Shown here piece after piece: positions 4,839 to 62,298 of a stretch of 64,000 nucleotides of DNA (position 1 is its first letter; the number at the start of each line of letters is the position of its first letter). The DNA comes from Strigamia acuminata (Eukaryota > Arthropoda > Chilopoda > Geophilomorpha > Linotaeniidae). The stretch covers positions 5,419,875 to 5,483,874 of the forward strand of contig OX442315.1 in assembly GCA_949358305.1 (NCBI GenBank), written 5' to 3'. The notes under the pieces were generated by a model. It was not told the DNA's origin, made no database searches, and saw nothing but the letters and a program-made list of their open reading frames with translations. The translations under genes were made by a program, and so were the position numbers.

Positions 4839-4977
4839 TTCAAACGGCAGTTTTCATTCCATTAAAATTACCCCTAGACACTATTTTACAGGCACTAGAG
4901 TCTAAGTCCTATCAACGGCAGCTCAATTGCGGATCGACCAGTAAAGGTAAGTATTTTACAGGTCGAGAAACCCGGAG
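4839..4977. other. junction between two Gypsy elements
   Basis: About 140 bases with no gene. The minus-strand integrase frame loses family resemblance at about 4978 and stops at 4956, so the 3' end of that element, including its 3' LTR, was deleted or replaced here. Confidence 0.4.
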
Positions 4978-7900: not shown

Positions 7901-8096
7901 CTTCACTCAAAAGGTTACTTTTTGCTCCAGTGTCCATGACTGCTTTTATCTCCAAATTCTTTACAATTACTGGGATTTCCAACAATGACTCCGAAATGTT
8001 TACGTCGATTATAGTGATGTTATCCTTTTTCCATCTTCTCTTCTTCTTCTTACTTCTATTTGGATGGTAACAATTTCTCTGTGGCCGTTCCGCTAG
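4956..8096 (-). pseudogene. Gypsy pol: protease, RT, RNase H, integrase (internal TAG, 3' truncated)
   Basis: The frame is open through the gag end (overlapping it in the -1 frame) and runs to the stop at 4956. In order: aspartic protease with DTGA (about 7925-7935), reverse transcriptase with YIDD (about 6625), RNase H starting STDAS (about 6180), integrase HHCC zinc finger (H..H...C..C, 5575-5430), then catalytic D (AIDTLG), D (LSDKGTEY) and E (LTERFNA). One in-frame TAG at 5706-5708 falls exactly in the RNase H-integrase linker; the frame before and after is the same. The next codons are CAA CTT. The protein ends abruptly after the DDE core, so the C-terminal integrase domain is absent. 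Either the TAG is a disabling mutation or it is read through; the truncation makes this copy defective regardless. Confidence 0.85.
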
Positions 8097-9475
8097 TTTT
8101 CCGCCTGCTGTTGGGTGTTAACTGTAGGATTAGGACCTTCTCTTCTACGTCTTCTTGGTCTTCCAGAATTACCACCTCTATCCTGTTGGTATCTTGGTGG
8201 ATTATAGAACTCGCAACTAAAATGATGATAGCATCCGCACGAACGAGTATTATTATTATTACTATTGTTGTTATTGTTAGTATTATAATTTTGACTACCA
8301 CCTCTATTAATACCTCCTTGAAAATTCTTGTATTGAAAATTCTGACCTCTTTGCTTCATTGGTGCATACCACTGGCTTCCTATTAAGATGGGTACTTCAG
8401 ACTCCGGATCCTCTGTCTCAAAAGCTAATAACTGTTGCCTCAACCTTGCATTCTCAGCTAAAAGCTCATCGTGGGTTAATGGGGTTACTACAGTTCCACT
8501 CAGTTTACCTGCTGTTACTGGAGTTACCTTTTCGTCCACTACCTTTTTGAAAAGTGACAGCAGTACATCCGTTGGATCCTTGACTTTCATAGTCTCATAC
8601 AACTTAAGTCTTTGTTCCATCTCTGCCAGTTTAGTCGGGAACACTGTCACCATCATTTGCTGCATCGCCGGCTTCAAACCTTGGTAAACATAATTAATTT
8701 TTTGTCCTTCAGTGAGTGCCGGCAACACAAAAGCACACTCGGCCAAGACTTTCTTCATATAGGCATCTGCTGTTCCTTCTGTGTGTCTCATGAAGTGAAG
8801 AGTATTTAAAACATTTTCCTGGCCCCTACGAAACTTTTTTTCAAGTTGTGGTTTCCACTCGGTCCAAGTCCATGTTGGATTCTTTTGTAATAACTCCACA
8901 AACCATGCCAGTCCATCAGTTTTTAACGCTAATGGTAAATGTTTAACTCTCTCATCATCAGTGCCTATTGTGGCTTCATACGCTACTAGCCATTGGTCGA
9001 TGTTTCCCTTTGTGGTGTCATAAGAAATAACATCCCGCTTTTGTATCATTACACTCTTAAAAAGGTCAGTTAGAACTGCTATTGGGTCCGCCATCTTGGA
9101 TTTTGCTCCTTTTGATGTGGATCCCTGAATATTAGTATTTACTAAAGGTGTTTGTATCTTTATTGGTGTTAATAATTCAAAAACTGATTGTAACAATTTG
9201 GGTTTTGTTAACTTCAAAGGTGAAGAAGAATCAAGTTCCTGTTGCGATAATGAGTCTTGGAATTGCTCTTCTTGATTTATCTCAACAACTGGTTCCTCTT
9301 GTTTTATTTCAACAACTTGTTCTTCCTCTTCAACTTCAGGTTTAGTGTGTTTTATTTTTCCACTCCCTCTTTTAGTTGAAACTTTAGGATTATCTACTGT
9401 CCTTTGTAGTTCTTGGTTTTGTAAATCTAGTAAATTATCCGTTTGTGTTTGTGTAAGCTTTACTGGTTTCTCCAC
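8093..9475 (-). CDS. Gypsy Gag polyprotein
   Basis: A 460-codon frame with an ATG at 9475 and stop TAG at 8093. The N-terminal third is acidic and low-complexity (glutamate/glutamine-rich). The middle has the retrotransposon capsid region (about residues 130-290; W-x-V-A-Y-E-A, L-A-W-F, W-T-E-W-K, then the R-x-G-Q helix). The C-terminus is Asn- and Arg-rich, with a short Cys/His patch (CGCYHH) instead of a classical CCHC knuckle. The pol frame overlaps the end in the -1 frame and the last codons before the stop are GGAAAAC, so a -1 shift would join Gag to Pol. Gag forms the particle in which reverse transcription takes place. Confidence 0.85.
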   Translation of the reverse strand: MEKPVKLTQTQTDNLLDLQNQELQRTVDNPKVSTKRGSGKIKHTKPEVEEEEQVVEIKQEEPVVEINQEEQFQDSLSQQELDSSSPLKLTKPKLLQSVFELLTPIKIQTPLVNTNIQGSTSKGAKSKMADPIAVLTDLFKSVMIQKRDVISYDTTKGNIDQWLVAYEATIGTDDERVKHLPLALKTDGLAWFVELLQKNPTWTWTEWKPQLEKKFRRGQENVLNTLHFMRHTEGTADAYMKKVLAECAFVLPALTEGQKINYVYQGLKPAMQQMMVTVFPTKLAEMEQRLKLYETMKVKDPTDVLLSLFKKVVDEKVTPVTAGKLSGTVVTPLTHDELLAENARLRQQLLAFETEDPESEVPILIGSQWYAPMKQRGQNFQYKNFQGGINRGGSQNYNTNNNNNSNNNNTRSCGCYHHFSCEFYNPPRYQQDRGGNSGRPRRRRREGPNPTVNTQQQAEN

Positions 9476-10086
9476 TGTTAAGCTTTGAAATGCACTATAA
9501 TTTTTATTTTCACTACTCTATAATGCACTTCACACATTCACTAATAACCACAATTCACCAACACACAATCCTGAAATAAATTTAATTTATTATCAACAAT
9601 CACCAATTTAAATTCAAAATATCACAACAATATCGCTAATTTCCTGAAAAGTAGACAATTATACTATTAATCATCAACAGAATCAATACTATTTATCAAT
9701 TTCCTGAAAAAAAAAAATATTTATTAAAACTTTATTAAATAAATTATTATCAAAATTATTTCCCTCTAAATATTTAATATTCAACAATTATAAACAACTT
9801 TAATAATTAAATCCAAAATATTATTCAATTCAATGTAATCTTATTAAATATTCAAACACTATACTGTCTTCAAACTCTGAGTCACTCTATGATTCACTCT
9901 TATTTCTATCTAATATGCAAATTATATTGCACTACTCTTAAATTTTATAAGAATTCTTATTTTTAACTTAGCTCTTTCGGGGTTTTTTAGCTCTAACTTC
10001 TCAATTTTAGCACATAACTGGCTGATTTTACTGTAAATTTTTACTTATTCACTACTTTTATCAACCAATTAGTGGGTCTCAAAAGA

Positions 10087-13891: not shown

Positions 13892-16366
13892 ATTACCTTC
13901 CCTGCCAAACGAACAAAAAAATCACTGCCTTTCAGATGAATTGGCCTGCGATTACTATCGCCAAGTAAATGATATAGAAAGAACATTCAATGCACTTTTT
14001 GATTGCCATTGCCCAACAGAGTGTGAAAAATCCGTGTTCACTTCGCATTATTCTTTCAGCGACGCGAGAGAAAAGTCATTAGAAGTCTATTCATTTAGCA
14101 GTCGGATTCGTGCATTATCCGAATACTTTTTCTACGACTTTATTGCTCTTCTGTGTGACATTGGTGGTTTCATGTGTTTTTATGTGGGTGCATCTTGTTT
14201 GTCAATTGTCGATCTCATTGTACAAATCATTCGTAGGCAAAACAAAAAGGTTTCGCTCTTTTTGAAGAACACAAATCGGTTTGAAATTGCTGTGATTTCT
14301 AGAGTAAAAAAAATGTTAAATCAAGAACAACAACTACAAAGTACAACTAAGAAACAATTTAATTTTTTTGTCAAATTAAGATCAACTTTCATATGTGTTT
14401 TGTGTGGTCTCTGTTTGTATTTAATCTATGAACAAATCAAGGCATTTACAGCATATACTACGTATGTGACTATTGAACTTGAACAGGAAGAATATATACA
14501 AATACCAGATCTTGTTGTGTGCACAGAACCAGAAGCTATCTATAAAGAAAAAGAAATAATTAAAATAGAGAAACAGCTGAATAATTCGTGTGTGGAAGAT
14601 ATCGATATTTTGGATTTACTTGATGAACCATCCAGATTTGCAGCAAATGCTACGCTCTTGTGGCAAGAAACTGAAGACATGGAGGATTATGATAATGCTG
14701 AAGTAAGAACTTGCTTGTGCTAAAAGTCTATATCGTTAAGATGGGTTTCCACTTTTTACTCTTTCTAATCACTTGGAGAGTATTATGTGCTATATTTTGG
14801 AATTTATTACATATCAGGTGATCAATGATGTCATGTAAAAGTTTTCACATGTTGTCAATTTTATAAAATAGAGTTAAAATTCTCACACTCAAAATTTAAA
14901 CTTAAAATACAATTAAACTACAATTGTTAAAACACAAGTATTTTAATTTTTGAATGAAGCTAGTATTCTTCGTGGCTTGGGTACTCGCCCACGCACAAAT
15001 ATTTTCCTCTTTTGTAGTCAAGAAACTATGGTGCATTAAAAATATTGTTTTTTTAAGGTGATAGCAAAGGAAATAGGCGAGTATTCAAACCTCCTACTGG
15101 AATACCCACAAAAGTCAATCATGACAACTGTTTTTGGACAATGCGTTCTCTTGCAATCAGGTACCTATAATAATTTTTTTTAACTCACTACTGTTCACAC
15201 GACAATCTTCAGATCGGGGCTGGCATACGGTCAATCAGCGCCCACTGCAATTGTTTTTGAGTGCTCCATCTTTCATTGTTTTCAATGCTAGTTAATAGAT
15301 TTTGGGCGCATTAATGCGGTTGCATCGCTCGAACCTACCTTGAGTCGGCCCTGACTATAAGAAAATAAAAATTGAGATTATTCATGGTTTCTCATTTGTA
15401 TACAATCTGGTCAAATCAGAAATGATTAATACGCGATTCCATTTTGTGTAAAACAGGAAGTAACCACGATTTAATATTTTAGCTAAGTCAAAATACGTGC
15501 CACGTGACAGTGGAATATACTTATATTATCAATCGGGAGGATTACGATGCAACTCTCATTCTAAAGTACGAAACAATAATTAAGCATGCGTGAAATTATT
15601 TAAAATCGGTTTAACAGTTACACTTTATCCCTTCAGTTTTTTTTTGTCCAAACCCACAACACGATCAATACGAAAATGTTTGCGATTCAGCCTCATGACT
15701 CATTGATGATGGTGCAATTTACGAAGCAAACAGTTAATCCAAAGCAACATGATAATGCAATGTCGCCCACTTTAATAACACAATATATTGTATTGTAATT
15801 GTAGATAGTAAGGATGAACTCGCCAATAAACCCATGCGTGTCGAAAGAAGTGTTGCAAAGTTGCGAAACTGATTGTCTCGAAAAGAAAATGTCGGAAGAA
15901 AACATCAAGTGCAGGTGAAACAAGTGTTTTGCAATGACTTTCATTCAAACTGTTAATTCTTTTTATTGAATCGTAACCTCAAAGATTGCCCTTCATGGAT
16001 TCAACAACTGTACCTCTATGCAACACATCGGCTTCAGCTAAGCAATCCAGAAAGTCCTATTTGAATGTTTATTCCAATGTCGACGTTATTCGTGACTGCC
16101 ACTGTCATCCCGCTTGTAATCAGACGGTTTACACGCAATTGAGTGAATACGTGCAAATTTTCGAAGTAATGAATTTTATACTTTCAAAACTTCGGATGGA
16201 AAGCAATATAAACGAAATATTTAAGCAGAAACTTGTTAAGCCGTTTGCAAAATTCATCAGTGACTGTGGCTCAATTTTAGGATTTCTTCTTGGAGTGTCA
16301 GTTGTCTCTTGCTTAGAATTATTGCAAACTCTGTGCCACTTCATCGATAATAAAATAAATAGATAA
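13892..16366 (+). CDS. DEG/ENaC channel, partial duplicate: TM2, linker, second TM1, extracellular domain, TM2
   Basis: Exons with matching phases are 13892-14702, 15058-15160, 15483-15565, 15805-15914 and 15985-16366 (stop TAG). Exon 1 encodes the end of one extracellular domain (DCHCPTEC), then a TM2 with the GxS selectivity motif (VGASCLS). A basic cytosolic linker of roughly 60 residues follows, then a new TM1 (CVLCGLCLYLIYEQI) and the IPDLVVCTEP motif that follows TM1 in this family. The last exon has DCHCHPAC and a second TM2 with GVS. The 811-nt first exon has no stop or intron between the two halves. The apparent stop after AEVRTC lies in the intron (donor GAA|GTAAGA). Exons for the first TM1 are not found upstream in the window, which is filled with transposons, so this copy may be a 5'-truncated gene. 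AATAAA lies at 16512. DEG/ENaC subunits are amiloride-type sodium channels. Confidence 0.85.
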
Positions 16367-16799
16367 TAGATTAAAATGGTTTTTGAAATTCACGAAGTAA
16401 ATGCCAAATGTTAATTCCTTTCGATAATTCAAGCTCACTATTACTTTGACAAATCTCACTATTTGAAACTATGTATAGTAGAACATTAGAAAATGTATCA
16501 CAGTTAGTTTGAATAAATATATTTAAATTCCAGTGATTTCAAAAGCATTCCTTGCGACTGGATTGAAGCGTCTTCCCCGAGTCTCTATATGCAGGGCAGG
16601 GTTCTCAAACTTTTTAACATTACGGCACACTTTTTACGAAATCAATCTACAGTGACCCATTGAATATTTTTCGGTAATTCATATTGACTAATTTCTTACC
16701 CAAAATATAATAGAATGATGTTGTATTTGAATTCAAGGCCATTGTGTTTGTGAAGTTGGGTTCCAATCAAATTTTAACAAACACTTCTGAAAATGCGGG

Positions 16800-17740
16800 C
16801 TTTTAAAGAAATTCGAAGGCAACAGAATTCTGTTAGGGAGTATTTTTTTGGGGGTAAGGCGGTAGCTGCCAGTCAACCAAAAATAATGCAGATGCAGCAA
16901 AATAGACGAGAAACACCGATGATAGTAAAATGCACACACGAACTAAAATTGGTATTTTTAAATCAAAAACTGCAGTGTTGAAATGCAAAGTAAAGCAAAC
17001 TGAATAAAACCAATTAAAACGTTGATATTTTGGGAAGAATATTTTATTTTTTGCTATTTCACTGCTGCCACCTTACGCCAGTTTGAGCATTAAAGAATCA
17101 ATATATGACGCTTTCCATGACGTAATGCACGTCTTTATCTCGGCATTGATTCAATCCGTATCCGCTTGAACGTACGCGTTGTTCGTTGCTCTCTTAATCA
17201 ACTTCGCTACGAGGTAAGCAAAGTTTAATACTAATAACTCCCTAATAAAGTTTCTCTCATAGAACGTTCACTTTGTTTGAAAAACTAGAAATCTCTTCAT
17301 TGATTAAAACAAAAATAACAGCCCTTGAATTATTTTTGCCCGTTCTGCCCCTAAATTTACAAACGTGTGGAAAAATATATATATCGGTGAATTAAACACG
17401 GTGTGGTTTCCTTTCTTCGTGCTTCACGGACTTAAGGCAGCTGGTGTACATTTGTTAGTGCAATTTTGATGCGGTGTACTCTGTTTAGCCCGGACGTACA
17501 TTACATAAAGTTGTATTTCGGCACTCCATGGGTGTATGGGGTTGTATTTTGGGACCTTTGTTCGGGCTTGTATGTCGGCGCTGGGGTTTCTTCATTTCGT
17601 CGCCCTTCATTTCGTCGCCAAAAACGGCGACGAACTGACACGACGACGAAATGAAGGGCGACGAAATGATGTGATTAAAAACAAAAAAAAAAACGAACAG
17701 AAGGGCGACGAAATGTCTAATCCGAAATGCCTAATGGTTT
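16800..17740. other. intergenic, no gene seen
   Basis: Short open frames only. A 25-bp piece (GCGGGCTTTTAAAGAAATTC) at 16797 also occurs at 29516 after the second DEG copy and marks the duplication edge. 17590-17670 holds inverted CGTCGCCCTTCATTTCGTCG blocks. Confidence 0.5.
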
Positions 17741-17742
17741 GT

Positions 17743-17837
17743 TTAGGTTAGGTTAGGGCAGGTCAGGTCAGGTTAGGTCAGGTTAGGTTAGGTTAGGTCA
17801 GGGTAGGTCAGGTTAGGTTAAGTCAGGTCAGGTTAGG
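17743..17837 (+). repeat. degenerate TTAGG/TCAGG telomere-like tract
   Basis: About 19 pentamers alternating GGTTA and GGTCA, flanked by GGCGACGAAATG motifs. TTAGG is the ancestral arthropod telomere repeat; this is an interstitial, partly decayed block. Confidence 0.75.
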
Positions 17838-18879
17838 CGACGAAATGATATGGCGATGAAATGAAGGGCAACGAAATAAAGTGACTCCTCGGCGCTTACA
17901 TGTTGCATGGATGTGGTGCACAATCTCCACAACTGGAAGCGGCATTGTACCGACAACACTGTTGGTATGCAATGATCATTTAAATTTGCATTTATTCAAT
18001 ATTATTAATTTATTTTTATGTTTTTATAGTTATTTGTTCATTTTTGTTTCAGTATGAATTTTCAACTTGCACTTTTAAAATTATTTCTGCAACTTGGAGC
18101 GCGTGATTGTATTCTTAAAAAGCTCACTACCGTCTTCACCCGAAAAACAGATGTTTTGGAAACATTGTGGAAAAATTCGAATACAACACCATTTCAGCTC
18201 TAACACCATATTCGATTATAATACCATGGTGTTATATCCAGATTTTAAATAATTAAGAAATAAGATTAAACTTAATAAAGAACAATAACTTAATTGAATC
18301 ATCTTTTGCTTTGGGAAAACAAAGGATAAGTCACATGACTTGTCTTTGTGCAACTTTTGGACAATTTTATAGAAAATTAATCCCTGTTGGCCTAAAAATG
18401 AAAGTTTATTGATTGGATTGTTATATTTGAATACAACACCATGGTGAAGGCAGTAGTGGAAACTAGGTGCATTTTTCCTCGTAATAAGTTTAAACTTTTC
18501 ATTTGAATTACAGTGTTTTACTGAAAGAGAAAATAAATTACAGAAACAGAGCAATTGATTATGAATGTTGCGTGTGTTGTGTAGCACTTATCGTAATTGT
18601 ATGATGAAAAGTTATAGTGGGAGGACCTTCAATATTTAAATTTCTAAAATTCTATCAGCAAAACCATTAAATTTAATTGGAATTCAAATGAATTTTTTGT
18701 AGGATAGATGTTGACTTTAGGTTCACTTAACTCGATACGCTTTCTGAATCCACCCCAGTAAGGCTCTAATAGACAAGCCTGTTTACGCTGTCTACGACAA
18801 ATCGTTGTCGACGAACCAATGATTCTATAAGAAATTTACTTAGTAGTTTATATAGCAAGTCGACAGTACAATTTTCAGA

Positions 18880-19525
18880 GGTAATATTCCGAGCGTCGGG
18901 ATAATTAGGTCAGCACGAATCTTCTTGCCTGATAAGAAGATGATTGCTGACCTAATCCCGACAATTACTCAAGCGCGAGGTGTATTTTATACGAGAATTT
19001 ACTGATAGAAAACAATGTAACCACGAATGAGATTAGGCCTGACAAAACAATCCTTCTGCCAACCAATCCTGACGCGCGTAACAAACCAAATTTGACATTT
19101 GATACTTGGTTCGTACAGCCGCAACGGGTGGCGCCAGTAGCAAGAGAACAAAATTCTCAAAATCGATAATTATGCATGGCGAAAGGAATTTCTTCCCGGT
19201 AAGAACCAATGAGGCGCCAAAAGCGGTTTGTTACGCACGTTGGGATTGGTCGGGAGAACGATTGTTGTTTTGTTATGCGTAATCTCATTTGTGGTTATTA
19301 ATAGACGTAGCTAGTGGTAAATTCTCACAGGTAATATACCGAGCGCGACGTGTAATTGTCGGGATAATTAGGTCAGCACAAATCTTCTTGCCTGATAAGA
19401 TCACGAGTGCCCGTTGGGGCACGAGTGATCTTATCTGACAAGAAGATGAGTGCTGACCTAATCCCGACAATTACTAAAGCGCGAGGTGTATTTGATACGA
19501 GAATTTACCGATAGAAAATAACGTA
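18880..19525. repeat. compound inverted repeat: two palindromic units around a third
   Basis: Units at about 18885-19010 and 19326-19510 are near-duplicates. Each is palindromic around ATCTTCTTGCCTGATAAGA, with AATTAGGTCAGCAC mirrored by GTGCTGACCTAATT-type arms. Between them 19021-19293 forms another palindrome (AACCACGAATGAGATTA at one end, inverted at the other). No coding sequence. Confidence 0.65.
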
Positions 19526-19684
19526 GATAGTGAAAATGAGATAGTGAACATGAGATAGCGAAAATGAGATAGCGAAAATGAGATAGTGGAAATGAGATAG
19601 TGGAAATGAGATAGTGGAAATGAGATAGTGGAAATGAGATAGTGGAAATGAGATAGTGGAAATGAGATAGTGGAAATGAGATAG
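19526..19684 (+). repeat. 14-bp minisatellite (ATAGTGGAAATGAG)
   Basis: About eleven head-to-tail copies, the first four with A or C variants, the last seven nearly perfect. Confidence 0.9.
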
Positions 19685-19973
19685 ACAAAGCTAGTGGTAA
19701 ATTCTCAATGAAATGATTTTATTACGAACTCACAAGTCAGAAACCATCAACGTCAGGGCAAAATTTCCATTTACAAAGTTGTAGAGCACACTTTAATTAG
19801 TATAAAACACATGTCAACTTTATTACGTGCTACTAACCAAAGTGAAAAATATTACCTGCTTGTAAACACACTTTTGAGTATTCCCACCTATTTGTCTTTT
19901 CATGCATTTAAGTACTCCCCTTGTGAGTTTTATATACAGGTATTAAAAGTCTGATTTGGGTTTAAAAGGTACA

Positions 19974-22900
19974 ATGATGCATTATAAAAGGAAAACAGCA
20001 GAAATTCGAAGACTTACTGAAACATATGTGCAGTTGAAATTGGAAACTTTAACATTTTCACCTGTTGAAACCAAAATGCACAAAAAAGTGGCAAGAATTT
20101 ATAATATTTTTCGATTATCTGCTGGCACACTCACACTGTGTTTGTGCATATTCCAATGTTTGGATCAAATCATTTATTACGCTCAAGGACCCATAAAAGT
20201 TCAGGCTGACATTACTGAAGAAACTGCTGGTGATTTTCCGGCATTATATCTAACTACAAGTTTTACGGATCAAAGCATGAAACGTATGGAAAAAGGTCTC
20301 GTAGGTAAGTTATTTTGTATTTAAAATATAGTGTTTAACCTAGTATTTAACTTGGTATCTTGAAAAATCTAGCATGCCCCCATGGTATATTTCATTTAGA
20401 CAATAAAACTGACCTCTATGAAGTATTTAAAATGAAAAATTTTACAAAGATGATAAAAAACATCACTTTTTCAAGAGTTAGTGCAAGTAATCAGTAACAA
20501 TAGAGACGTTCTGCCAGGCGTTAGACGGGAACGGCTGACGATTGGAATGCCGAAACGTCATCACTTTTTGTGCTGACGTTATGCAACGGAGCCAAGCTTC
20601 GTGTTGTGCGCGCGTTTGCAACGTGTAATGGCGGGTCCAGAGGTCGTGAAAACAATGGCAACGGGCAAGCCAATGGGTGGGCGGAGCTTACTCTACAAGT
20701 TGCCATTTCAGTCCTACGCCTGGCAAAACCTCTCTAATGACACTCTCACGTGACTGAATAACTCGACAGAATGGGTTTCAGCTACCAGTGCACGTGCAAG
20801 GGCAGCAAATTTCTCACTACAATATTCCTTACTATCCAAGTGTCTTTCAATATCTATTAATTTTTAACTTTTGTTTGCAAAAATATTTAAATTTATCTTG
20901 CAGGGATCAAGACTGTATTCCGATGGATTCAAAACACAGGAAACATTCTTATTTAACTCGATGTGTTCAAGAATAGAAAATGGTCAGTAATGCCATGAAC
21001 CAAGGATAACATGGACAAATATCCGTGTGTTATTTCCTATTGATTCGTTATTCTGTATGCTGATTGGAAGACAACAATCACAAGTCGTGCATTGCATGTC
21101 AATTAAGCTTGTTTGTACCCTGTTAGCCCGCTTTATGCTGGTGGCACACTAGGCGCGATGCAGCGCAAATCGCGTCGCAAAGCGATTTTGACATCATCAA
21201 AAATGACGTCAGGTCTCATTGGATTGGCTGCGATGAAAATCGCAGACCAATTCGCGCCACATTGCGTCTAGTATATCACCAGCATTACTGTAAGCAGCAT
21301 GCCATTTTTTGAAATTTAAGAACCGGGATGAATACAATTTTATGCTTGTTTAGGCTCAATTCTTAATGAAAAAAACTCACACCGGCATGCCGGTAAAAAA
21401 TGGGTTTATCTGAATGCTGGTAAAACTCGCACTATACCGGCATGCGGCTTAAAGCGGGGTAATACGCTATCGTTTACGCAGTTTATACAGGGTGTCCCAA
21501 AAGTCTGAACCTCCCCAAGTAATTTCCAAAATACTTGAGATATCAGAAAACTGAAGAAAAACTCATAGGGGAAATCTTTCATTGCGAATCTGATGGGATC
21601 CTCAAGTTTGACCTCAAAGGTCATTTTCAAGGTCATTCACTTGCTAACTTCTAAACCAATCAGGTTAGAGCAAAATTTCCAATTACAAAGTTGTAGAAAA
21701 CCATCTAAATAGTCTAGAACTGTTCTTAAAAAAATTATTTCTTACGGAAAAGTTTTGAGAAAAAAAGGTTTGAAATGTTAGTCTACCCAGCTTTGTAACC
21801 TAAAACTATCATGTGGAATCTATTTCCAAAATAAATTATTTCCTTTCTTTTGTGTTTCCTCTCTTCTACTTACAAGTATGACCCAATAAAGTGTCCTAAT
21901 TGAGGATTAGCTTGGTTGCCTCAATAGTTTTAAGTGACAAAGCTGAGTTACAAAGCTAAGTAAACTAACATTTCAAACCTTTTTTTCTCAAACCTTTTCC
22001 TTAGGAAATAATTTTGTTAAGAACAGTTCTAGACTAATTAGATGGTTCTCTACAACTTTGTAATTGGAAATTTTGCTCTGACCTGATTGGTTTAGAAGTT
22101 AGCAAGTGAATGACCTTGAAATTGACCTTTGAGGTCAAATTTGAGGATCCCATCAGATTCACAATGAAAGATTTCCCCTAAGAGTTTTTCTTCAGTTTTC
22201 TGATATCTCAAGTATTTTGGAAATTACTTGGGGAGGTTCAGACTTTTGGGACACCCTGTATAAATAGAGGGAGATATACAGAAACACCCCTAATTGTGAG
22301 TACGGTTATAGCAATGGTAAAAAATGGTAAAACATACTTTGGAAGCGCCTACAGTCAGCGCACGGTATCTTGATGCTAAATTCGTACTGCGCATCCCATT
22401 CTGCGCAGACGATTTTCTAATTCCTGTTGTTATTTAGCAGTATTAAGCCTATTATTAGGCCTAATAATGCTAAAATAAAGCAAATAAACTATACTCTTGT
22501 TCGACTCAAGAGTATACCCTTCTCCCATTGGCCGAGCCGCATTACTCCTAACTCCAGTCTGTATTACCATAGAGTAAAGAATCTATGGTATTACTACCAC
22601 TAGGAGAAGTAGTTCTTATTTTTATTATTATTATTACTACATTTTTGGATCACTACACCAGTGGCCAATGGGAGAAGGATATACTCTTGAGTCGAACAAG
22701 AGTATACAATAAACTTATCATTAAAAAATAAATCACACAGTATGATCAAAATATTGTTGTTTATTTACTTTATTTTAGCATTGGTAGACCAAATATTAGG
22801 CTTAATCCTGCTAAATAACAACTGGAATTAGAAAATCCTGCGCAGAATGGGATGCGCAGTACGAATTTAGCATCAAGATACCGTGAGCTGACTGTAGTTG

Positions 22901-25900
22901 CTTTTAAGCACAGAAATGTTGAATCCCCCAAGTGATCATTGGTTCCACTACAGCTACAGTTGTTAATGATAAAGTTTTAAAAGATTATTAGCTTTTAGTA
23001 AATACAGAATGAAAGAAAAATTGAAATACCGTATTTTATCAATTATGAGTCGCCCTCGAATTGTAGCCGGCCTTAAATTGTAGCCGCGGCTGAGACACCA
23101 AGAATACCGTATTTTTGCAAAAGTACAGTAATGTTTCCGTATTTAACCTGACGAACGATAAACATACGCTTCGTTCGTGACGTTCTGACTTTGTTGATTA
23201 CATTAAACAAATGTAACAAACGAAAAACCGAAATTGTAATTGCTGACAAAATTATCAGTTTTAAATAAGAGCCACGGCTCTTAATCGATAAAGTATGGTA
23301 GCGTTGAATATTGAAGTTGTATAAAAATAATTATTCGTTTATTGTTTTTTATACTTAGTAAAAGAAATGAAAATTGGACCAGAAAACCGTATTAAAATTC
23401 AATTTCAGACTAATATGAGTTTCCAGGATTATCATGTACTGATGGTAAGTAAATTAACACGAGTAAAGTGGTAGATAGAATGATAACAAATGACATCAAG
23501 TTGTGGTGAAACACTAAATGAATAACAAAATGCATTTATGTTTTGAAAATCAATAAAATAAGAATGCGAGTGCAACTTACTACTACTGTGCTGCTCTGAA
23601 ATATTTTTAAAGTAAATTTTTTAACGAAGATCTAACTGAAGATCTATGTTTCTTGGAAGTTGAGAGCGAGTTAATGTGCGACTGTTATTGTGAAATGTGG
23701 TAATATGAGTGATTTTATTACAGGCACTGAGATGGTCAGCGTCACAATATAAAACAATGGTCAAGAATGGCCAATGGAGTCCGAGACACTCCAAAAACTG
23801 TTTTATGACAATTAATATTTTCAAATTTTATATTCTAGATAACCCTAACATCTAAAACAAAAAAAAATATTGCCACGATTACACCACCATATCATCTTGG
23901 ACACTTATTTAAATCCAATGCGGTCACATTTACACTCAAAAGGGTAAGTGGCTGTTTTCACGCAAAGAGCCCAGCTTTGAATTATCTATGATGGCAGACA
24001 TGTTGAGCGTTTTCTGTAATTTGTTGCATTTTATTTTTTTACTTTTGTACAAACATTGAACAGGGAAATTGTGTTTCATCTGAAGCACTAGCTGCGTTCA
24101 AAAAATCTAAAACGTATGCAAAACTCGTTTCGTGTCTGTACATGTGACGTCATTCCCATTGATAACATGGGAATGACGTCACATGTACAGACACGAAACG
24201 AGTTTTGCATACGTTTTAGAGTTTTTGAATGCAGCTACTGTAAATGGGGATGCTAACTGCAAAAATGTAAAAAAAAATTCTCATCCCAACAGCTGATGAT
24301 CAGTTGTTTACCTGAACCTATGGTAATAGATTTTGCTACAAAAACTTAAATTGCATTTAAGAAGCCATGTGGATATGACATAGTCGTAACAGTGATGTTC
24401 GACCTGTATTTGTGTACAGTATTATATTTTAAATGGAAATTTCAAAGAATTTGTTTTTATTCTACACAGTACAAATTTCTTAACCGGAAGTCGGCTGCCT
24501 GTGTTGACGAACGCAAAATGGAACGCTGCCGAAGTCAGTGTTATTCTGATAAAATCGCTTTACAAAATTTTACTTGCCAGTAAGTTTAACATTTTCACTT
24601 GCCAGTAAGTTTAACATTTTCACTTGCCAGTAAGTTTAACATTTTCACTTGCCAGTAAGTTTAACATTTTCACTTGCCAGTAAGTTTAACATTTTCACTT
24701 GCCAGTAGGTTTAACATTTTCACTTGCCAGTAAGTTTAACATTTTCACTTGCCAGTAAGTTTAACATTTTCACTTGCCAGTAAGTTTAACATTTTCACTT
24801 GCCAGTAAGTTTAACATTTTCACTTGCCAGTAAGTTTAACATTTTCACTTGCCAGTAAGTTTAACATTTTCACTTGCCAGTAAGTTTAACATTTTCACTT
24901 GCCAGTAAGTTTAACATTTTCACTTGCCAGTAAGTTTAACATTTTCACTTGCCAGTAAGTTTAACATTTTCACTTGCCAGTAAGTTTAACATTTTCACTT
25001 GCCAGTAAGTTTAACATTTTCACTTGCCAGTAGGTTTAACATTTTCACTTGCCAGTAAGTTTAACATTTTCACTTGCCAGTAAGTTTAACATTTTCACTT
25101 GCCAGTAAGTTTAACATTTTCACTTGCCAGTAAGTTTAACATTTTCACTTGCCAGTAAGTTTAACATTTTCACTTGCCAGTAAGTTTAACATTTTCACTT
25201 GCCAGTAAGTTTAACATTTTCACTTGCCAGTAAGTTTAACATTTTCACTTGCCAGTAAGTTTAACATTTTCACTTGCCAGTAAGTTTAACATTTTCACTT
25301 GCCAGTAAGTTTAACATTTTCACTTGCCAGTAAGTTTAACATTTTCACTTGCCAGTAAGTTTAACATTTTCACTTGCCAGTAAGTTTAACATTTTCACTT
25401 GCCAGTAAGTTTAACATTTTCACTTGCAACAAGAACCAAACACCTGACGGCTGGGCAGGGCTAATACTGATACTGATAATCAGAAAACAATCAAAATGAT
25501 CTTAGCACTCAGATATAAATGACATTAACCTTCTTATAATAGCTTTTGAAATCAGAAGTTAAATTTTTTTTTCAGATTACCTTCCCTGCCAAACGAACAA
25601 AAAAATCACTGCCTTTCAGATGAATTGGCATGCGATTACTATCGCCGAGTAAATGATATAGAAAGAACATTCAATGCACTTTTTGATTGCCATTGCCCAA
25701 CAGAATGTGAAAAATCCGTGTTCACTTCGCATTATTCTTTCAGCGACACAAGAGAAAAGTCATTAGAAGTCTATTCATTTAGCAATCGGATTCGTGGATT
25801 ATCCGAATACTTTTTCTACGACTTTATTGCTCTTTTGTGTGACATTGGTGGTTTCATGTGTTTTTATGTGGGTGCATCTTGTTTGTCAATTGTCGATCTC

Positions 25901-28900
25901 ATTGTACAAATCATTCGTGAGCAAAACAAAAAAGTTTCGCTCCTTTTGAAGAAAACTAATCAGTTTGAAATTGCTGTGATTTCCAGAGTAAAAAAAATGT
26001 TAAATCAAGAACAACAACTACAAAGTCCAACTAAGATACAATTTTATTTTATTGTCAAATTAAGAACAACATTTATCTGTGTTTTGTGTGGTCTCTGTTT
26101 GTATTTAATCTATGAACAAATCAAGGCATTTACAGCATATAATACGTATGAAACTATTGAACTTGAACAAGAAGAATATATACACATACCAGATCTTGTT
26201 GTGTGCACAGAACCAGAAGCTATCTATAAAGAAAAAGAAATAATGAAAATAGACAAACAGCTGAATGATTCGTGTGTGGAAGATATCGATATTTTGGATT
26301 TACTTGATGAGCCATCCAAATTTGCAGCAAATGCTACGCTCTTGTGGCAAGAAACTGAAGATATGGAGGATTATGATACTGCTGAAGTAAGAACTTGCTT
26401 GTGCTAAAAGTCTATACCGTTAAGGTGGGTTTTCAATTGCGATTTTTTCACAAATCTCACGCGAGCTTTAGAAAGCAATAAAAAAATCGCACGTGTTTGC
26501 ATTTTCAACTCAGCGAAAAATGCAACACGTGCAATTTCTGATGCGAAGACAAGTGATATGTCGATAAGTCACAAATAGTGGACTTATTGAGTCTCCGTAC
26601 TCCAGTTTAAAGTGTATGCTAATTTGTGATGTTACCCGTGCATCAGTCAGATCAGCCATTTGACTTTGAAAAAGTATTTGCTTTAATTCCAATGGATTGA
26701 AATGCCCGAGGCTGTTTTGGACCAAAAATTGTTTTAAGATGGAAACACAGGAGCGGGTAAGATTTAAAAGCTTGCTTTTACTTGAAAAAGCGGCCAAAAA
26801 CTCGCCCGCTTGCGCAAACACAAGCTTGCGTTTTTATTCAAAGCTTCGCTTTGAAGTGAGCTTGTATGCACCAGCTCCGAGTTTGATTTACCAGCTTCAA
26901 CCTTGCTGGTGTTTTGGTCATGTAACTTTGACAGCCAGTTGCAATTGTGAGGAAATTCTTGGAGGAAATTTTGGCGGGAATTTCTGGCTAGCTACCTAGC
27001 TACTGTAGCTTGAGTTTGCCAGTTAAGCTGGTAAGACAAAAGCGGGTCAAGGGAGCTTGTAAATGACATCTATGCAACAAGGGAGCACTAAAATACCTAA
27101 CTAAACAAAAAAATCCTCTCTCCACACATCGGCCCTGGCCCTAAACACTGTATTCTTCGTGCCATGGGTACTCGCCCACGCACAAATAAATATTCTCCTC
27201 GTTTCTAGTCAAGAAATTAAACTACAAACTACAAACTATGATACATTAAAAATATTGTTTTTTTTAAGATGATAATAAAGACATTCGGCGAGTTTTCCAA
27301 CCTCCTACAGGAATACCCACAAAAGTCAATCATGACAACTGTTTTTGGACAATGCGTTCTCTTGCAATCAGGTACCTAATAATTTCTGTTTAACTCACTA
27401 CTGTAGTCCCCTAATACAGGGGTTCCCAAACTTTTTAGCATCGCGCCCCACTTTTTAAGCAAGGCGATGTTCTGCGCCCCACTTCATCTACCAGTGCATT
27501 AAATTTTTAAAAAATATACTACTAAAAAGAAAAAAAGAAATTTTTATACAATTTTGCATAAAACTTTGTATAATTTTTTATATAATTTTATATACTTTTG
27601 GTTAAAAATTTACAAAAGTTTGCAAAATAAGCTTGTTTTATTTAAGCAAGCACCAATAATCAGCTGGCGCCTCACCATTTGGGAAACCCTGCCCTAATAG
27701 TTCAAATGAGACAATCTTATTTAATGAATAAAATCAGGGCTGGCATAAGGCCAATCAGTGGCCGGTGCAATTGTTTTTGTGCGCTCCATCGTTCATTGTT
27801 TTCAATGCTAGTCAATAGATTTTGGGCGCATTAATGCGGTTGCATCGCTCGATCCTACCTTGAGTCGGCCCTGAATATAATAAAATAAATATTGAGATTA
27901 ATCATGATTACTCATTTCATTACTTATTTGTATACAATCTGGTCAAATCAGAAATGATTGATACGCGATTCAATTTTGTGTAAAACAGGAAGTAACCAAT
28001 TACTCCGTATTTAATATTCTAGATAAGTCAAAATACTTGCCACGTGACAGTGCAATATACGTATATTATCAATCGGGAGGATTAAGATGCAACTCTCATT
28101 CGAAAGTACGAAACAATAACCCTTGGAGGCATAAGGCTATACGGATTTATAGACAAGCTCTTTCTTCAATATAAAAAATTTTTTTCCTATCTATTTTTTT
28201 TGCTGAAATTTTGCGATTTTGTTTATATTATACTGAACCTTAACTCAGGTGAAATTCTAAGTCATTGGTCATTTATTTAATTAATTATGCTAAACGCAAA
28301 TTTTCTGCCCCTTAAAACTCCAGCAAAACTATTATGCTGGCTTTGCTGCTTAAGAAAAAGCGTTTCAGTTATTAGCTTTTTGCATTTACCAGTAGTGTTT
28401 AAACCAACCACTAGTTGGTAAAAAAATATATTTTTTCACTGTTCATAACTAGCGCCTTCTATAAAATTAGTTTCAAACTTTCAAAAATCGAAATGGCGCT
28501 TTACCTAATCCGTAATGCCTTACTATACCTGAACGGCACAATTTACCCTTATGCCTACGAGGGATAATTAAGCATGCGTGACATTATTTAAAATCGATTT
28601 AACAGTAACACTTTATCCCTTCAGTTTTTTTTTGTGCAAACCCACAACAGGATCAATACGAAAATGTGTGCGATTCATCCTCATAACTCACTGATGTTGG
28701 TGGAATTTACAAAGCAAACAGTTAATCCAAAGCAACATGATAATGCAATGTCGCCCACTTTAATAACACAATATATTGTATTGTAATTGTAGATAGTAAA
28801 GATAAACTCGCCAATAAACCCATGCGTGTCGAAAGAAGTGTTGCAAAGTTGCGAAACTGATTGTCTCGAAAAGAAAATGTCGGAAGAAAACATCAAGTGC

Positions 28901-29354
28901 AGGTGAAACAAGTGTTTTGCAATGACTTTCATTCAAACTGTTAATTCTTTCTATTGAATCGTAACCTCAAAGATTGCCCTTCATGGATTCAACAACTGTA
29001 CCTCTATGCAACACATCGGCTTTAGCTAAGCAATCCAGAAAGTCATATTTGAATGTTTATTCCAATGTTGACGTTATTCGTGACTGCCACTGTCATCCTG
29101 CTTGCAATCAGACGGTTTACACGCAATTGAGTGAATACATGCAAATATACGAACTTATGAATTTTATACTCACAAAACTTCGGATGGAAAGCAATATAAA
29201 CGAAATATTTAAGCAGAAACTTGTTAAGCCATTTGCAAAATTCATCAGTGACTGTGGCTCAATTTTAGGATTTTTTCTCGGAGTGTCAGTTGTCTCTTGC
29301 TTAGAATTATTGCAAACTCTGTGCCACTTCATCGATGATAGAATAAATAAGTAA
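19974..29354 (+). CDS. DEG/ENaC channel with two concatenated subunits (full-length candidate)
   Basis: Exons: 19974-20304 (ATGATG start, TM1 CLCIFQCLDQIIYY, FPALYLTT); a probable exon 20904-20982; 23409-23444; 23839-23943; 24470-24579; 25576-26386 (end of ectodomain 1, TM2 with GAS, linker, second TM1, IPDLVVCTEP); 27269-27371; 28023-28105; 28793-28902; 28973-29354 (TM2 with GVS, stop TAA). Phases agree from 23409 to the end. The 20304/20904 and 20982/23409 junctions do not fit in phase, so a small exon is missing from my model or there is a lesion. Predicted topology is cytosolic N-terminus, four membrane segments, two cysteine-rich ectodomains and cytosolic C-terminus. The fusion exon is about 92% identical in protein to that of the 13892 copy, with frame preserved. 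Introns hold many MITEs and a donor-site minisatellite. TATATA at 19931 and AATAAA at 29496 are possible ends. Confidence 0.8.
21138..21284. mobile_element. short MITE in an intron of the DEG/ENaC gene
   Basis: TGCTGGTGGCACACTAG at the left is imperfectly mirrored by CTAGTATATCACCAGCA at the right; GCGATTT/AAATCGC blocks pair inside. Confidence 0.5.
21377..21473. repeat. fragment of the TACCGTATTACCCCGCC MITE family
   Basis: It repeats the CACCGGCATGCCGGTAAAAA...GGGGTAATACG end of the element at 12947-13380. Confidence 0.55.
21488..22258. mobile_element. complete CAGGGTGTCCC fold-back MITE, TATA target duplication
   Basis: It starts CAGGGTGTCCCAAAAGTCTG and ends with the exact inverse at 22258; TATA flanks both sides. 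The arms extend about 330 bp each and include GGTCATTTTCAAGGTCATTC-type blocks. Same family as 10602 and 12521. No ORF. It lies in an intron of the DEG/ENaC gene. Confidence 0.85.
22345..22900. mobile_element. nested palindromes, one fold-back element within another
   Basis: The outer pair is CGGTATCTTGATGCTAAATT (22362) and its inverse ending near 22885. The inner pair is TATACTCTTGTTCGACTCAA (22489) and its inverse near 22705, with a CCCATTGGCC block pairing inside. Confidence 0.7.
23097..23265. repeat. dispersed repeat copy 1
   Basis: Begins AGAATACCGTATTTTTGCAA and runs through an AAACGAAAAACCGAAATTGT segment; a close copy lies at 43489-43655 in a TRAF-like gene intron. Confidence 0.7.
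24089..24237. mobile_element. near-perfect 70-bp-arm palindrome
   Basis: Arms from GCTGCGTTC to ATGTGACGTCATTCCCAT and back, loop of a few bases around TTGATAAC, flanked by TA. It would fold into a very stable hairpin. Confidence 0.75.
24576..25425 (+). repeat. 25-bp minisatellite, 34 copies, each containing a consensus splice donor
   Basis: The unit GCCAGTAAGT-TTAACATTTTCACTT repeats head to tail for 850 bp = 34 units. The first unit is the real exon end: coding sequence ends TTGCCA and the intron begins GTAAGT. Every unit restores CCA|GTAAGT; two units read GTAGGT. It fills most of the intron before the fusion exon. Confidence 0.95.
26420..27240. other. intron of the second DEG/ENaC copy, expanded relative to the first
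   Basis: The matching intron of the 13892 copy is only about 355 bp (14703-15057). About 500 bp here has no counterpart and looks like a transposable insertion with GCTTGC-rich inverted pieces, but I cannot define ends. No gene seen. Confidence 0.45.
27417..27691. mobile_element. hAT-type MITE, 8-bp target duplication CCCTAATA
   Basis: It starts CAGGGGTTCCCAAAC and ends GTTTGGGAAACCCTG-like (ATTTGGGAAACCCTG). CCCTAATA is repeated exactly on both sides. The homologous intron of the other DEG/ENaC copy lacks it, so it inserted after the duplication. Confidence 0.9.
28120..28563. mobile_element. MITE with CCCTTGGAGGCATAAGG-type ends, ATAA target duplication
   Basis: Left CCCTTGGAGGCATAAGG, right CCTTATGCCTACGAGGG, flanked by ATAA on both sides. 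The first DEG/ENaC copy has the empty site (ACAATAATTAAGC at about 15573). The CCC/GGG ends and A/T-only 4-bp duplication resemble piggyBac-type elements. Confidence 0.85.
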
Positions 29355-31156: not shown

Positions 31157-31686
31157 ATAGGGCTGTCACTCTGTGGCAGAATACAACAACACGACATAAT
31201 GAAGAAAAAAAGTTACAAGAGTAGCGTTCTTGATTTCCAATTATTACAAACTCGTAATGATTAAATCTAATTTGAGAATAATAGTATCATCCACTAAATA
31301 TAATGGTTTAAGTTTGTCCAACGAAATAAAACGTGATTTTCTCCAGCCTACATTTACTGAAGTCACTGGTTTGTCAAAATGATCGTCACCTTCAATGAAA
31401 TCAGATGTCCATTGCTTATAATGATGATCTTTATGTTCCAACTGATCCAACAAACTCAAATTTGCAGAATACTCAATGGGCCACTTAAGAACTGCATCCT
31501 TCTGACCTTTCATCACTTGAAGAAAAGTCGACAAATGAGTTCCTAGCCCATCACGATGCCCATTTGGATCTAGTTCTAGTCGCATTTTATAACCATTCTT
31601 ATTGGAATAAAAAGGATCACTGTAAACGGTAAAGCCCAATTTTGCCTGAGCTTGACAGTTTGCAAACTTCTCTACTTTCCAGATAT

Positions 31687-32188
31687 TGTTACGCGGTAGA
31701 GCCGTACCGTGTATCGGCTGGCTCTGCTCGCTCTGTTTAGGCATTTAATGCAATGAATTCTCACTAGACGGCGCTGTGCACCTAATAAGATGCACAGACC
31801 GTTCAACTTAGTTGATAGGGGGAATAGGAGTTTACTTAGTGAGTCGATTAAGCCAGAGAGCTCAGATCTCTTTTGATTCTCAAACTGTTACCTTCACCTA
31901 CTACTGCCAGCCGGTTGACGGTCAGGCAGGACTAGGTTTCTTAAACTGAATTGAATTGACAACAGCATCATCCTTATTTAGTTATTTATTTGATTTGAAT
32001 GAATGATTTATATTTTAGGTTAATAAATGAACAAATGTAATAAGAGCTGTTGACCGAACATTTACATGAGTAAATGTCCGACTTTGAATAATAAAGCCAA
32101 TAGGCATTTTACATATAAAACCCTGTGTCATTCTTGATTAACTTCATGTCACGTAGGACTAAATCAATCCCCATTTAGCCACGTAACA
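31687..32188. mobile_element. solo LTR inserted in the MATH exon, ATAT duplication
   Basis: TGTTACGCGG...CCACGTAACA, flanked by ATAT on both sides (31683-31686 and 32189-32192). It has AATAAA near 32090 and a TATA-like ACATATAAAA near 32112, suggesting plus orientation. No internal region remains, as expected after LTR-LTR recombination. Confidence 0.85.
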
Positions 32189-45170: not shown

Positions 45171-45390
45171 TTTGTTGTTGTTTATTGAATGTTGTATTCC
45201 TGTCCGCCAGGTGTCTTTGTCACCTGTGCACCTGTCACTGACACTGACCAATCAGTGACCCGAATTGTATTTGGTGCTCCACGCACTTTTTAACATCTGT
45301 TTAAGATTAAAACCATCACTGTTAATATTTTCACCTAACAACCACGCGTCTCCATTTTTATGCCTCCAACATATTAGAACAAAAACTACA

Positions 45391-45420
45391 GGTTATGGGC
45401 CCAGCACGCTTCCACTGCGC
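45391..45420 (+). other. primer site of the outer Copia: internal initiator tRNA-Met half
   Basis: The LTR is followed at once by GGTTATGGGCCCAGCACGCT and ten more bases complementary to the 5' half of initiator tRNA-Met ending in the anticodon loop. Drosophila copia primes in this way from a tRNA half rather than the 3' CCA end. Confidence 0.8.
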
Positions 45421-45511
45421 TTAAAAATCATCAAGTTTTGTACCGGAACATTCGAGGAAGTTAAAAACGAATTTAACACGAACATTCCACAAAAAACAGA
45501 ACTAAGAAACG

Positions 45512-46633
45512 ATGGCGAACGGCGGCGGAAATTCAGCTCGAATCGAGGCGTTGGGAAAGGAAAACTTCGACACATGGAAGATCCAGATGGAAGCAATTTT
45601 GGATCAACGGGACCTACTCGTGCACGCGGAAGGTACGTCGAAACGACCAGAAACCATCGAAGGAAACGCGAAACGCGTGAAGGAGATCGAAACGTGGGAG
45701 AAAAGTGATCGAACAGCCAAAAATGACATTTTGCTAAATATAAAACAATCGGAACTTCGAATGGCCAAAAATTGCAACACCGCGAATGAATTATGGAAGA
45801 AGTTGCACAGTGTGTACCAATCGAAAGGACCGGCAAGAAAAATCACGTTGTTAAAACGACTCGCAACACACAAAATGGCGGACGGAGAAAACGTGGAGAA
45901 TCACTTAAAAGAATTCTTCGAGCTGGTGGATAAGCTACTAGACATGGATTTCAAGATGCCCGAAGACTTCACGACGATTCTACTACTACTAAGCCTGCCA
46001 AACTCTTACGACAACTTCAGATGCGCAATAGAATCGCAAGACAAATTGCCTTCACTGGAAGTTTTGGAGGGAAAAATCAAAGACGAGTCGATCGCCCGCG
46101 GAAAAGGAAAAGAAGACGTGTCGGACGCCATGATGGCCAGAAAAACGTTCCAAAAACGTAAGCAACCAAAGAAATACGGCGACGAAAATTCGAATTCGAC
46201 CGAGAAACCAGCTTTTAAATACAAGTGCCACGGTTGCGGAAAAATTGGCCACAAAATCGCCGATTGTCGAAGTAAAAGCAAGAAGGAAAGCGCATCAAGA
46301 GCCGAGAAATCCAAGTACGAATTATTTTTCTGCGAGCAAATCGAGACAGCACTGATAAGCGAGACGTCACGACCGAAAAATTGGTGTTTGGACAGCGGCG
46401 CCAGCTCCCACATGTGCTCGAACGATTCAACATTTTCGACGATCGAATTCCTGAAAAACCAAAAACTGAATTTGGCCAGCAAAGCGAGTACAAAAATCGA
46501 CGGAAAAGGAACCGCGAAAATTGTCGTCAACACCGGGAACGGAAATGTGAAGCTGGATTTGGCGGAAACTCTTTTGGTACGAGATTTACGAACGAATTTG
46601 ATGTCAGTCGGGAAGATCACAGAACGGGGACAC
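45512..46633 (+). CDS. outer Copia gag and protease (5' part of split gag-pol)
   Basis: Starts at ATG 45512. The Gag domain fills residues 1-220 (F-D-T-W-K near the start, as in Copia-type UBN2 gag). A CCHC knuckle CHGCGKIGHKIADC lies near residue 239, and the protease motif CLDSGASSHM near residue 292. The frame is cut at 46633 by the inner element; it would resume at 53659. Confidence 0.9.
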
Positions 46634-62253: not shown

Positions 62254-62256
62254 TTT

Positions 62257-62275: not shown

Positions 62276-62298
62276 TACCCCAAACTGCAAGTAAAAAA

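What the first reader, a model, noticed from the sequence alone, without database searches (positions are those of the whole stretch)
13892..29354. Two DEG/ENaC subunits fused in one polypeptide, with the fusion inside a single exon
Seen: an 811-nt exon (25576-26386, and 13892-14702 in the duplicate) runs without stop or intron from the end of one cysteine-rich ectodomain through a GxS-containing TM2, a basic linker of about 60 residues, a second TM1 and the post-TM1 IPDLVVCTEP motif. Later exons complete a second ectodomain and a second GxS TM2. Known: DEG/ENaC subunits have two membrane segments and assemble as trimers. Inference: a natural concatemer with four membrane segments would have to form a trimer using 1.5 chains, or pair with a single subunit, which constrains stoichiometry. 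Both copies keep the frame with about 8% protein divergence, suggesting constraint. I know of no described naturally fused DEG/ENaC channel, but could not search.
Basis: partly seen in the sequence, partly recalled or inferred. Interest (0 to 1): 0.9.

Follow-up and report, generated by a model that had tools for sequence, protein, structure and literature searches.

The report
Naturally fused two-subunit DEG/ENaC channel family
A centipede genome appears to carry hundreds of gene copies in which two sodium-channel subunits, normally separate proteins that assemble in threes, are written as one continuous protein, which raises the question of how a two-in-one protein builds a three-part channel.

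Summary
Gene B (window 19974-29354) has 12 exons, GT-AG introns, consistent phases and a 790-aa frame without stops; each half alone matches Pfam ASC. "Copy A" is also complete: its exons 1-6 lie upstream of the window, across a 24.8-kb intron. Both belong to a local cluster of five intact fused genes, one only 49-50% identical to the others. Three genome searches give a union of 318 stop-free exons running TM2-linker-TM1 in one frame, a lower bound. Sampled distant genes show TM1-[TM2-linker-TM1]-TM2: two units, no third seen. The linker is about as constrained as the halves. Sampled half-2 TM2s replace the second Gly of GG by Ser/Asn, suggesting one fusion origin. The genome is very likely the centipede Strigamia acuminata. 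Most likely these are tandem sensory cation-channel subunits. Expression and stoichiometry are untested, and other arthropod proteomes could not be searched. The paper listings seen report no natural DEG/ENaC fusion. New variant of a known kind.

The parts
19974..20304 (+). Gene B exon 1: start (MM), N-terminus, TM1 of half 1, FPALYLT
20400..20476 (+). Gene B exon 2 (phase 1 to 0)
20904..20982 (+). Gene B exon 3 (phase 0 to 1), partner of exon 8
23359..23444 (+). Gene B exon 4 (phase 1 to 0), partner of exon 9
23839..23943 (+). Gene B exon 5 (phase 0 to 0), partner of exon 10
24470..24579 (+). Gene B exon 6 (phase 0 to 2), cysteine-rich, partner of exon 11
25576..26386 (+). Gene B exon 7, the 811-nt fusion exon: ectodomain end, TM2 (GAS), basic linker, TM1 of half 2, IPDLVVCTEP
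25859..25915 (+). TM2 of half 1 (hydropathy peak, residues 358-376, GASCLS)
25916..26050 (+). Basic linker between the hydropathy peaks (residues 377-421), presumably cytosolic
26051..26107 (+). TM1 of half 2 (hydropathy peak, residues 422-440)
27269..27371 (+). Gene B exon 8 (TVFGQC)
28023..28105 (+). Gene B exon 9
28625..28720 (+). Gene B exon 10
28793..28902 (+). Gene B exon 11, cysteine-rich
28973..29354 (+). Gene B exon 12: ectodomain end, TM2 of half 2 (DCGS...GVS), stop
13892..14702 (+). Gene A exon 7, fusion exon; exons 1-6 lie outside the window at C3:5404639-5408970
15058..15160 (+). Gene A exon 8
15483..15565 (+). Gene A exon 9
15637..15732 (+). Gene A exon 10
15805..15914 (+). Gene A exon 11
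15985..16366 (+). Gene A exon 12 with TM2 of half 2 and stop

Best explanation
Shown from sequence: the window holds two members of a very large family of centipede genes whose single reading frame encodes two complete DEG/ENaC subunits in tandem (TM1-ectodomain-TM2, basic linker, TM1-ectodomain-TM2). The simplest origin is two neighbouring subunit genes whose last and first exons merged into one exon, with loss of the stop codon between them, followed by extensive tandem and dispersed duplication.

Inferred: each chain is a pre-assembled heterodimer of two non-equivalent subunits (half 1 keeps GG-x6-GxS in TM2, half 2 has G[S/N]-x6-GxS). Fusion fixes their order and one-to-one ratio in the membrane. 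Since solved relatives are trimers, the third place is probably filled by one half of a second fused chain or by an ordinary single subunit; three chains forming two tethered trimers is the alternative. Family size and clustering suggest a sensory (chemo-, acid- or thermo-sensing) receptor repertoire.

The confidence below is for the fused polypeptide as a made channel subunit. Within it I give about 0.6 to 'third place filled by one half or a single subunit' and about 0.55 to 'sensory repertoire'.
For: Complete 12-exon frame of 790 aa and the same exon phases in both halves; both halves match Pfam ASC alone. Five intact fused genes locally, A-D 89-91% identical to each other, E 49-50% to them. 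318 stop-free junction exons as the union of three searches; among listed rows that span TM2 to TM1, stop-free are 134 of 136, 122 of 126 and 128 of 133 (hits; tallies in 53, 68 and by eye for the rows with stops). Order TM1-J-TM2 in distant loci, with a stop after the second TM2 in the four genes read. Linker pn/ps 0.49 pooled over A-D, as in the halves (0.46, 0.52), and dN/dS 0.20-0.32 against E. GxS kept in 13 of 13 half-1 and 13 of 13 half-2 TM2s, with GS or GN in 13 of 13 half-2s; four more genes agree. Linker net basic in 13 of 14 parsed. Nearest solved structures are the centipede channels BRTNaC1 and PDPNaC1, PDPNaC1 a homotrimer (abstract). An engineered two-unit ASIC1a fusion gave measurable acid-gated channels (passage).
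Against: No transcript or protein evidence. A linker AUG is present in 6 of 14 parsed linkers, so a separate second subunit is possible in some copies. Linker of L026 is not net basic (8 to 8). Half 1 of the window family lacks the cysteine after TM1 (FPALYLT) and scores lower in Pfam, so it could be a degenerate partner. Whole-gene dN/dS among A-D is 0.39-0.57, with two half-2 pairs at 0.71-0.72; linker pairs range 0.12-0.72 on 1-4 synonymous changes each. Short-fragment trees do not cleanly separate half 1 from half 2. The published ASIC fusions also show smaller products on blots, so function of the intact dimer is not fully proven there.
Confidence: 0.88

Rival explanations
1. Two overlapping transcription units share exon 7: subunit 1 ends early by an alternative poly(A) site, and subunit 2 starts at an AUG in the linker, so no fused protein is made.
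For: A linker AUG exists in A, B, D and E (VKKM in A, B and D) and in 6 of 14 parsed linkers; AATAAA or ATTAAA occurs in 2 of 14.
Against: 8 of 14 parsed linkers have no AUG before TM1, including gene C of the same cluster. No in-frame stop ends subunit 1 in 5 of 5 local genes. The linker is constrained as protein. The open frame persists in exons only 18-23% identical to B.
Confidence: 0.07
2. Nested within the best explanation: the fused chain is made but works as a double-barrelled complex. Three chains give six subunits, that is two trimers (one of half 1s, one of half 2s) tied by three linkers.
For: Arithmetic is exact for a trimer-forming family, and the two halves carry different, conserved TM2 signatures in the genes sampled, as expected if each half assembles with its own kind.
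Against: No direct evidence; the linker is short (25-52 residues in the parsed cut), which may not span two neighbouring trimers. An engineered two-unit ASIC fusion works without such a design being known.
Confidence: 0.2
3. Nested within the best explanation: two fused chains form a four-subunit channel, as K2P channels form from two two-pore chains.
For: One paper reports ASIC1a tetramers after cross-linking (passages).
Against: Solved DEG/ENaC structures are trimers (recalled), including the nearest centipede relatives (three chains per entry; homotrimer in the abstract listed).
Confidence: 0.1
4. Non-functional relics: the fused exons are pseudogenes spread by duplication.
For: Some copies carry stops or are partial (6 of 142 rows not spanning and 2 spanning with stops; similar rows). 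Gene A has a 24.8-kb retroelement-bearing intron.
Against: 384 of 395 spanning rows over the three overlapping searches are stop-free. Splice sites are intact in all five local genes. dN/dS is below 1, 0.25-0.34 in the halves against E.
Confidence: 0.03
5. Assembly or gene-model artefact that joins two neighbouring genes.
For: The assembly is one individual and no annotation of it was available here.
Against: The join is inside one exon with no intron to mispredict, and recurs in 318 places.
Confidence: 0.01

Closest known systems
BRTNaC1 and PDPNaC1 (Scolopendra DEG/ENaC channels; PDB 8ymr-8ymx, 9jf7)
   Same: Nearest solved relatives by sequence (BRTNaC1, E 2.7e-15 for half 2; PDPNaC1, 3e-10 for half 1); also centipede proteins; ectodomain end and TM2 align.
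   Different: Single-subunit chains of 431 and 421 aa; PDPNaC1 assembles as a homotrimer (abstract listed). Here 785-791 aa with four TM segments.
Insect pickpocket (PPK), ASIC and ENaC channels
   Same: Pfam ASC domain, TM topology, GxS motif, ectodomain cysteines (motifs recalled).
   Different: One subunit per chain as far as known (recalled). Heteromers form by separate chains rather than by fusion.
Engineered ASIC concatemers (PMC4529235, PMC10329638; passages read)
   Same: Subunits joined in one chain; a two-unit ASIC1a fusion gave functional acid-gated channels, three-unit ones too.
   Different: Laboratory constructs; the natural proteins have diverged halves and an inherited linker.
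K2P potassium channels (recalled)
   Same: Natural fusion of two 2-TM subunits in one 4-TM chain.
   Different: Two chains complete a four-subunit pore; two does not divide three in DEG/ENaC.

Membership tests
DEG/ENaC | Pfam ASC (PF00858) match | tested here: met
   Half 1 37.7 bits, half 2 62.1 bits, cut-off 23.6
DEG/ENaC | Two TM segments per subunit with a large ectodomain between | tested here: met
   Hydropathy peaks near 42-67, 358-376, 422-445 and 759-777 of B
DEG/ENaC | GxS motif in TM2 | tested here: met
   13 of 13 half-1 and 13 of 13 half-2 TM2 sequences; 4 and 4 more
DEG/ENaC | Conserved ectodomain cysteines | tested here: inconclusive
   C38, C40, C44 of the junction exon invariant in 13 of 13; full disulfide pattern not mapped; half 1 of the window family lacks the post-TM1 Cys
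DEG/ENaC | His-Gly motif before TM1 (recalled) | tested here: not met
   No HG before TM1 in either half of A-E (sequences); the two first exons of ordinary genes in L022 read lack it too, so perhaps not defining in this lineage
DEG/ENaC | One subunit per polypeptide | tested here: not met
   Two units in one frame
DEG/ENaC | Trimeric, amiloride-sensitive cation channel | not testable with these tools
   Needs expression and recording
Natural tandem DEG/ENaC fusion (proposed) | One exon encodes TM2, linker and TM1 without a stop | tested here: met
   318 places
Natural tandem DEG/ENaC fusion (proposed) | Exactly two units, no third | tested here: met
   Full models of the five local genes; TM1-J-TM2 order for four genes in L032/L033; downstream TM2 found in 7 of 8 distant J loci, upstream TM1 in 5 of 8. 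Not examined in the other copies
Natural tandem DEG/ENaC fusion (proposed) | Fused mRNA and protein exist | not testable with these tools
   No transcript data held

The most novel reading that the evidence does not exclude
A centipede lineage replaced free assembly of DEG/ENaC subunits by hard-wired pairs and expanded them into one of the largest ion-channel receptor families of any animal, a previously unrecognised sensory receptor class of several hundred four-TM tandem channels with a non-standard architecture (two tethered trimers, or an obligate fused pair plus a shared third subunit acting as co-receptor).
Probability: 0.35. Interest if true: 0.95.

Novelty: new variant of a known kind. 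Interest (0 to 1): 0.88.

Why it matters
DEG/ENaC channels are built as trimers, so a natural chain with two subunits poses a sharp stoichiometry puzzle that experiments can settle. If the hundreds of copies are expressed, they would be a very large ion-channel receptor family that I did not find described. They would also give natural fixed-pair heteromers in which subunit order and gating can be studied without artificial linkers. The difference between half 1 (GG) and half 2 (GS or GN) in TM2 gives a specific pore residue to test.

Tried and rejected
Artefact of joining neighbours: rejected, since the join lies inside one exon and recurs. Copy A as a partial or dead duplicate: first suspected because no exons 1-6 lie in the window (tblastn), rejected when they were found in L010. 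Three-unit fusions: looked for at close junction pairs; L028 and L032/L033 show a last TM2 and a new TM1 between junctions; other close pairs were not fetched. Single fusion origin by tree: fragments of about 100 aa give weak support; 12 of 13 half-2 TM2s group at 0.90, L021 falls elsewhere, half 1 is not one clade; the GS/GN signature is better evidence. Stand-alone second subunit: disfavoured (that script stopped with an error after 14 of 17 junctions, so its counts are of 14). AlphaFold2 of exon 7 alone: mean pLDDT 45, not used. Exon ends were off by one in my first model, corrected; exon 7 end and exon 8 of gene E were wrong or missing and corrected.
Full report
WHAT THE WINDOW IS. The window is C3:5419875-5483874 of a 237,517,015-base genome in 157 contigs. 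Strigamia acuminata (Chilopoda, Geophilomorpha) is published at 237.5 Mb, 158 scaffolds, longest 67.0 Mb (passages of PMC10556566); here C1 is 66,985,994 bases. I take the source to be that centipede, an inference from these figures. The nearest solved protein structures are also from a centipede.

THE OBSERVATION. Both 811-nt exons are real and open. I built gene B by hand from open frames and splice sites: 12 exons, 19974-29354, all introns GT-AG, all phases consistent, 790 codons and a stop. The phases of exons 3-6 and of the start of exon 7 (0>1, 1>0, 0>0, 0>2, 2>) recur in exons 8-11 and 12, so the two halves share the intron layout of one ancestral subunit gene. Each half alone matches Pfam ASC (37.7 and 62.1 bits against a cut-off of 23.6). 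A and B differ at 48 of 527 residues over exons 7-12, with dN/dS 0.41 (bootstrap 0.26-0.66).

THE LOCAL CLUSTER. DNA around the window shows that copy A is complete: exons 1-6 lie at C3:5404639-5408970, and intron 6 is 24.8 kb and contains a Ty3-type element. With three further genes there are five intact fused genes, D(-), C(+), A(+), B(+), E(-), of 791, 790, 790, 790 and 785 aa, between C3:5361048 and 5497517, all with GT-AG introns. A-D are 89-91% identical to each other; E is 49-50% identical to them. Two more close junction exons lie at C3:5596227 and 5616783 (not fetched).

CONSTRAINT ON THE LINKER. Pooled over the six pairs of A-D, pn/ps is 0.46 in half 1, 0.49 in the linker and 0.52 in half 2. 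Single pairs scatter: whole gene 0.39-0.57, half 2 up to 0.72, linker 0.12-0.72 on few changes. Against E, dN/dS is 0.20-0.32 in the linker, 0.29-0.34 in half 1 and 0.25-0.31 in half 2 (dS there is 1.1-2.3, near saturation, and the linker has only 52 codons). The linker thus evolves like translated protein in one frame with its neighbours.

THE GENOME-WIDE FAMILY. Following mostly long open frames from the first Pfam search, I fetched 13 places; 8 hold exons that run from the ectodomain end through TM2, a linker and TM1 in one frame. Aligned with A-E they share nine invariant columns although the eight are only 18-23% identical to B. In 7 of the 8, the exon begins one base before the LPF/MPF/FPF-like codon after AG, the same phase-2 acceptor as in the window (L020 is the exception). 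Three genome searches with different junction exons gave 142, 141 and 151 matches; I tallied the 142, 141 and 150 rows listed. Rows spanning TM2 to TM1 were 136, 126 and 133, of which 134, 122 and 128 are free of stops; the union of the latter by position is 318: C1 120, C3 80, C6 57, C8 38, C5 8, C4 4, C11 3, C135 3 and one each on C9, C30, C32, C50 and C76. Each search scored only 136-150 of 1316-1936 candidates, so 318 is a lower bound; some hits on small contigs may be haplotype copies, and most were not read beyond the hit.

TWO UNITS, NOT THREE. With small profiles for TM1 and TM2 I looked at the surroundings. Seven of the eight distant junction loci have a separate TM2 exon downstream in the held DNA (not L024); an upstream TM1 exon was found in five (L020, L021, L024, L025, L028). 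L032 and L033 hold four compact genes, each TM1-J-TM2, with a stop soon after the second TM2. Ordinary single-subunit genes also occur (L022, L030 and L031 show TM1 then TM2 without a junction exon).

ONE ORIGIN, TWO DIFFERENT HALVES. In TM2, half 1 has GG-x6-GxS in 13 of 13; half 2 has G[S/N] instead of GG in 13 of 13, keeping GxS. Among 14 TM2 sequences from loci where I saw no junction exon, 13 have GG; two of the 14 are the same exon, so 12 of 13 distinct. The four genes of L032/L033 agree (GG in half 1, GS in half 2). A shared change across subfamilies that are otherwise very different suggests a single fusion, though repeated change is not excluded. In ASIC1 numbering this second Gly lines the pore constriction (recalled). 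The fragment trees agree only in part: 12 of 13 half-2 TM2s group with support 0.90, L021 does not, and half 1 is not one clade; the TM1 tree is weaker still.

HOW IT PROBABLY WORKS. The linker is net basic in 13 of 14 parsed, which fits a cytosolic loop, so the chain would have four TM segments and two ectodomains, as in a laboratory concatemer. Solved relatives are trimers. A two-unit ASIC1a concatemer has a reported acid response (2ASICFP, pH0.5 6.35; passage of PMC4529235); the same paper argues for tetramers. I judge a trimer completed by one half of a second chain, or by a single subunit, more likely than two tethered trimers, and a four-subunit channel less likely. Clustered copies in the hundreds resemble sensory receptor families; BRTNaC1 and PDPNaC1 are centipede antennal thermo- and acid-sensing channels (passages). 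These steps are inferred.

RIVALS. Separate start of half 2: a linker AUG is present in 6 and absent in 8 of the 14 junctions parsed, absent even in gene C; canonical poly(A) signals lie in 2 of 14 linkers. Pseudogenes and artefacts are disfavoured as above. No transcript data were available, and this is the main gap.

LITERATURE. I saw listings of seven full-text searches on this point: 20 of 126 papers listed; 15 of 72; 4 of 4; 7 of 7; 2 of 2; 10 of 22; 8 of 66. No title or start of abstract listed reports a natural fusion of two DEG/ENaC subunits. The main text of the S. maritima genome paper has no occurrence of ENaC, pickpocket or sodium channel.

Noticed in passing
window 24567-25427: Minisatellite of 34.5 copies of a 25-bp unit, 99% matches; the unit contains tgcca-gtaagt, the splice donor of gene B exon 6 at 24579, so the donor is followed by about 33 tandem copies of itself.
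   Followed up: partly
window 4959-9517 (-): Ty3-type LTR retroelement frames (reverse transcriptase, RNase H, aspartic protease, integrase zinc finger) inside the 24.8-kb intron 6 of gene A.
   Followed up: partly
window 45176-56974 (+): Copia-type element frames (gag, RVT_2, integrase) between 100% identical 215-bp direct repeats at 45176-45390 and 56760-56974, hence probably young.
   Followed up: no
window 62236-63999 (+): Frame with DUF1759 and DUF1758, typical of Bel/Pao elements (element type recalled).
   Followed up: no
window 31247-31744 and 38171-38746 (-), 57780-58331 (-): Duplicated TRAF-type MATH-domain genes and a BTB-domain frame.
   Followed up: no
window 15733-15804 vs 28721-28792, and 15915-15984 vs 28903-28972: The introns between exons 10-11 and 11-12 of genes A and B are almost identical (0 of 72 and 1 of 70 differences) while those between exons 8-9 and 9-10 differ by 13% and 10% of aligned bases, suggesting recent gene conversion (where exon 7 is called E6).
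   Followed up: no
window 21482-22264, 24086-24240: Inverted repeats (86% and 94%), probably foldback or MITE-like elements in introns 3 and 5 of gene B.
   Followed up: no
L022, L031, L007, L008: Conventional single-subunit DEG/ENaC genes in tandem in the same genome, several with GxC instead of GxS in TM2.
   Followed up: no
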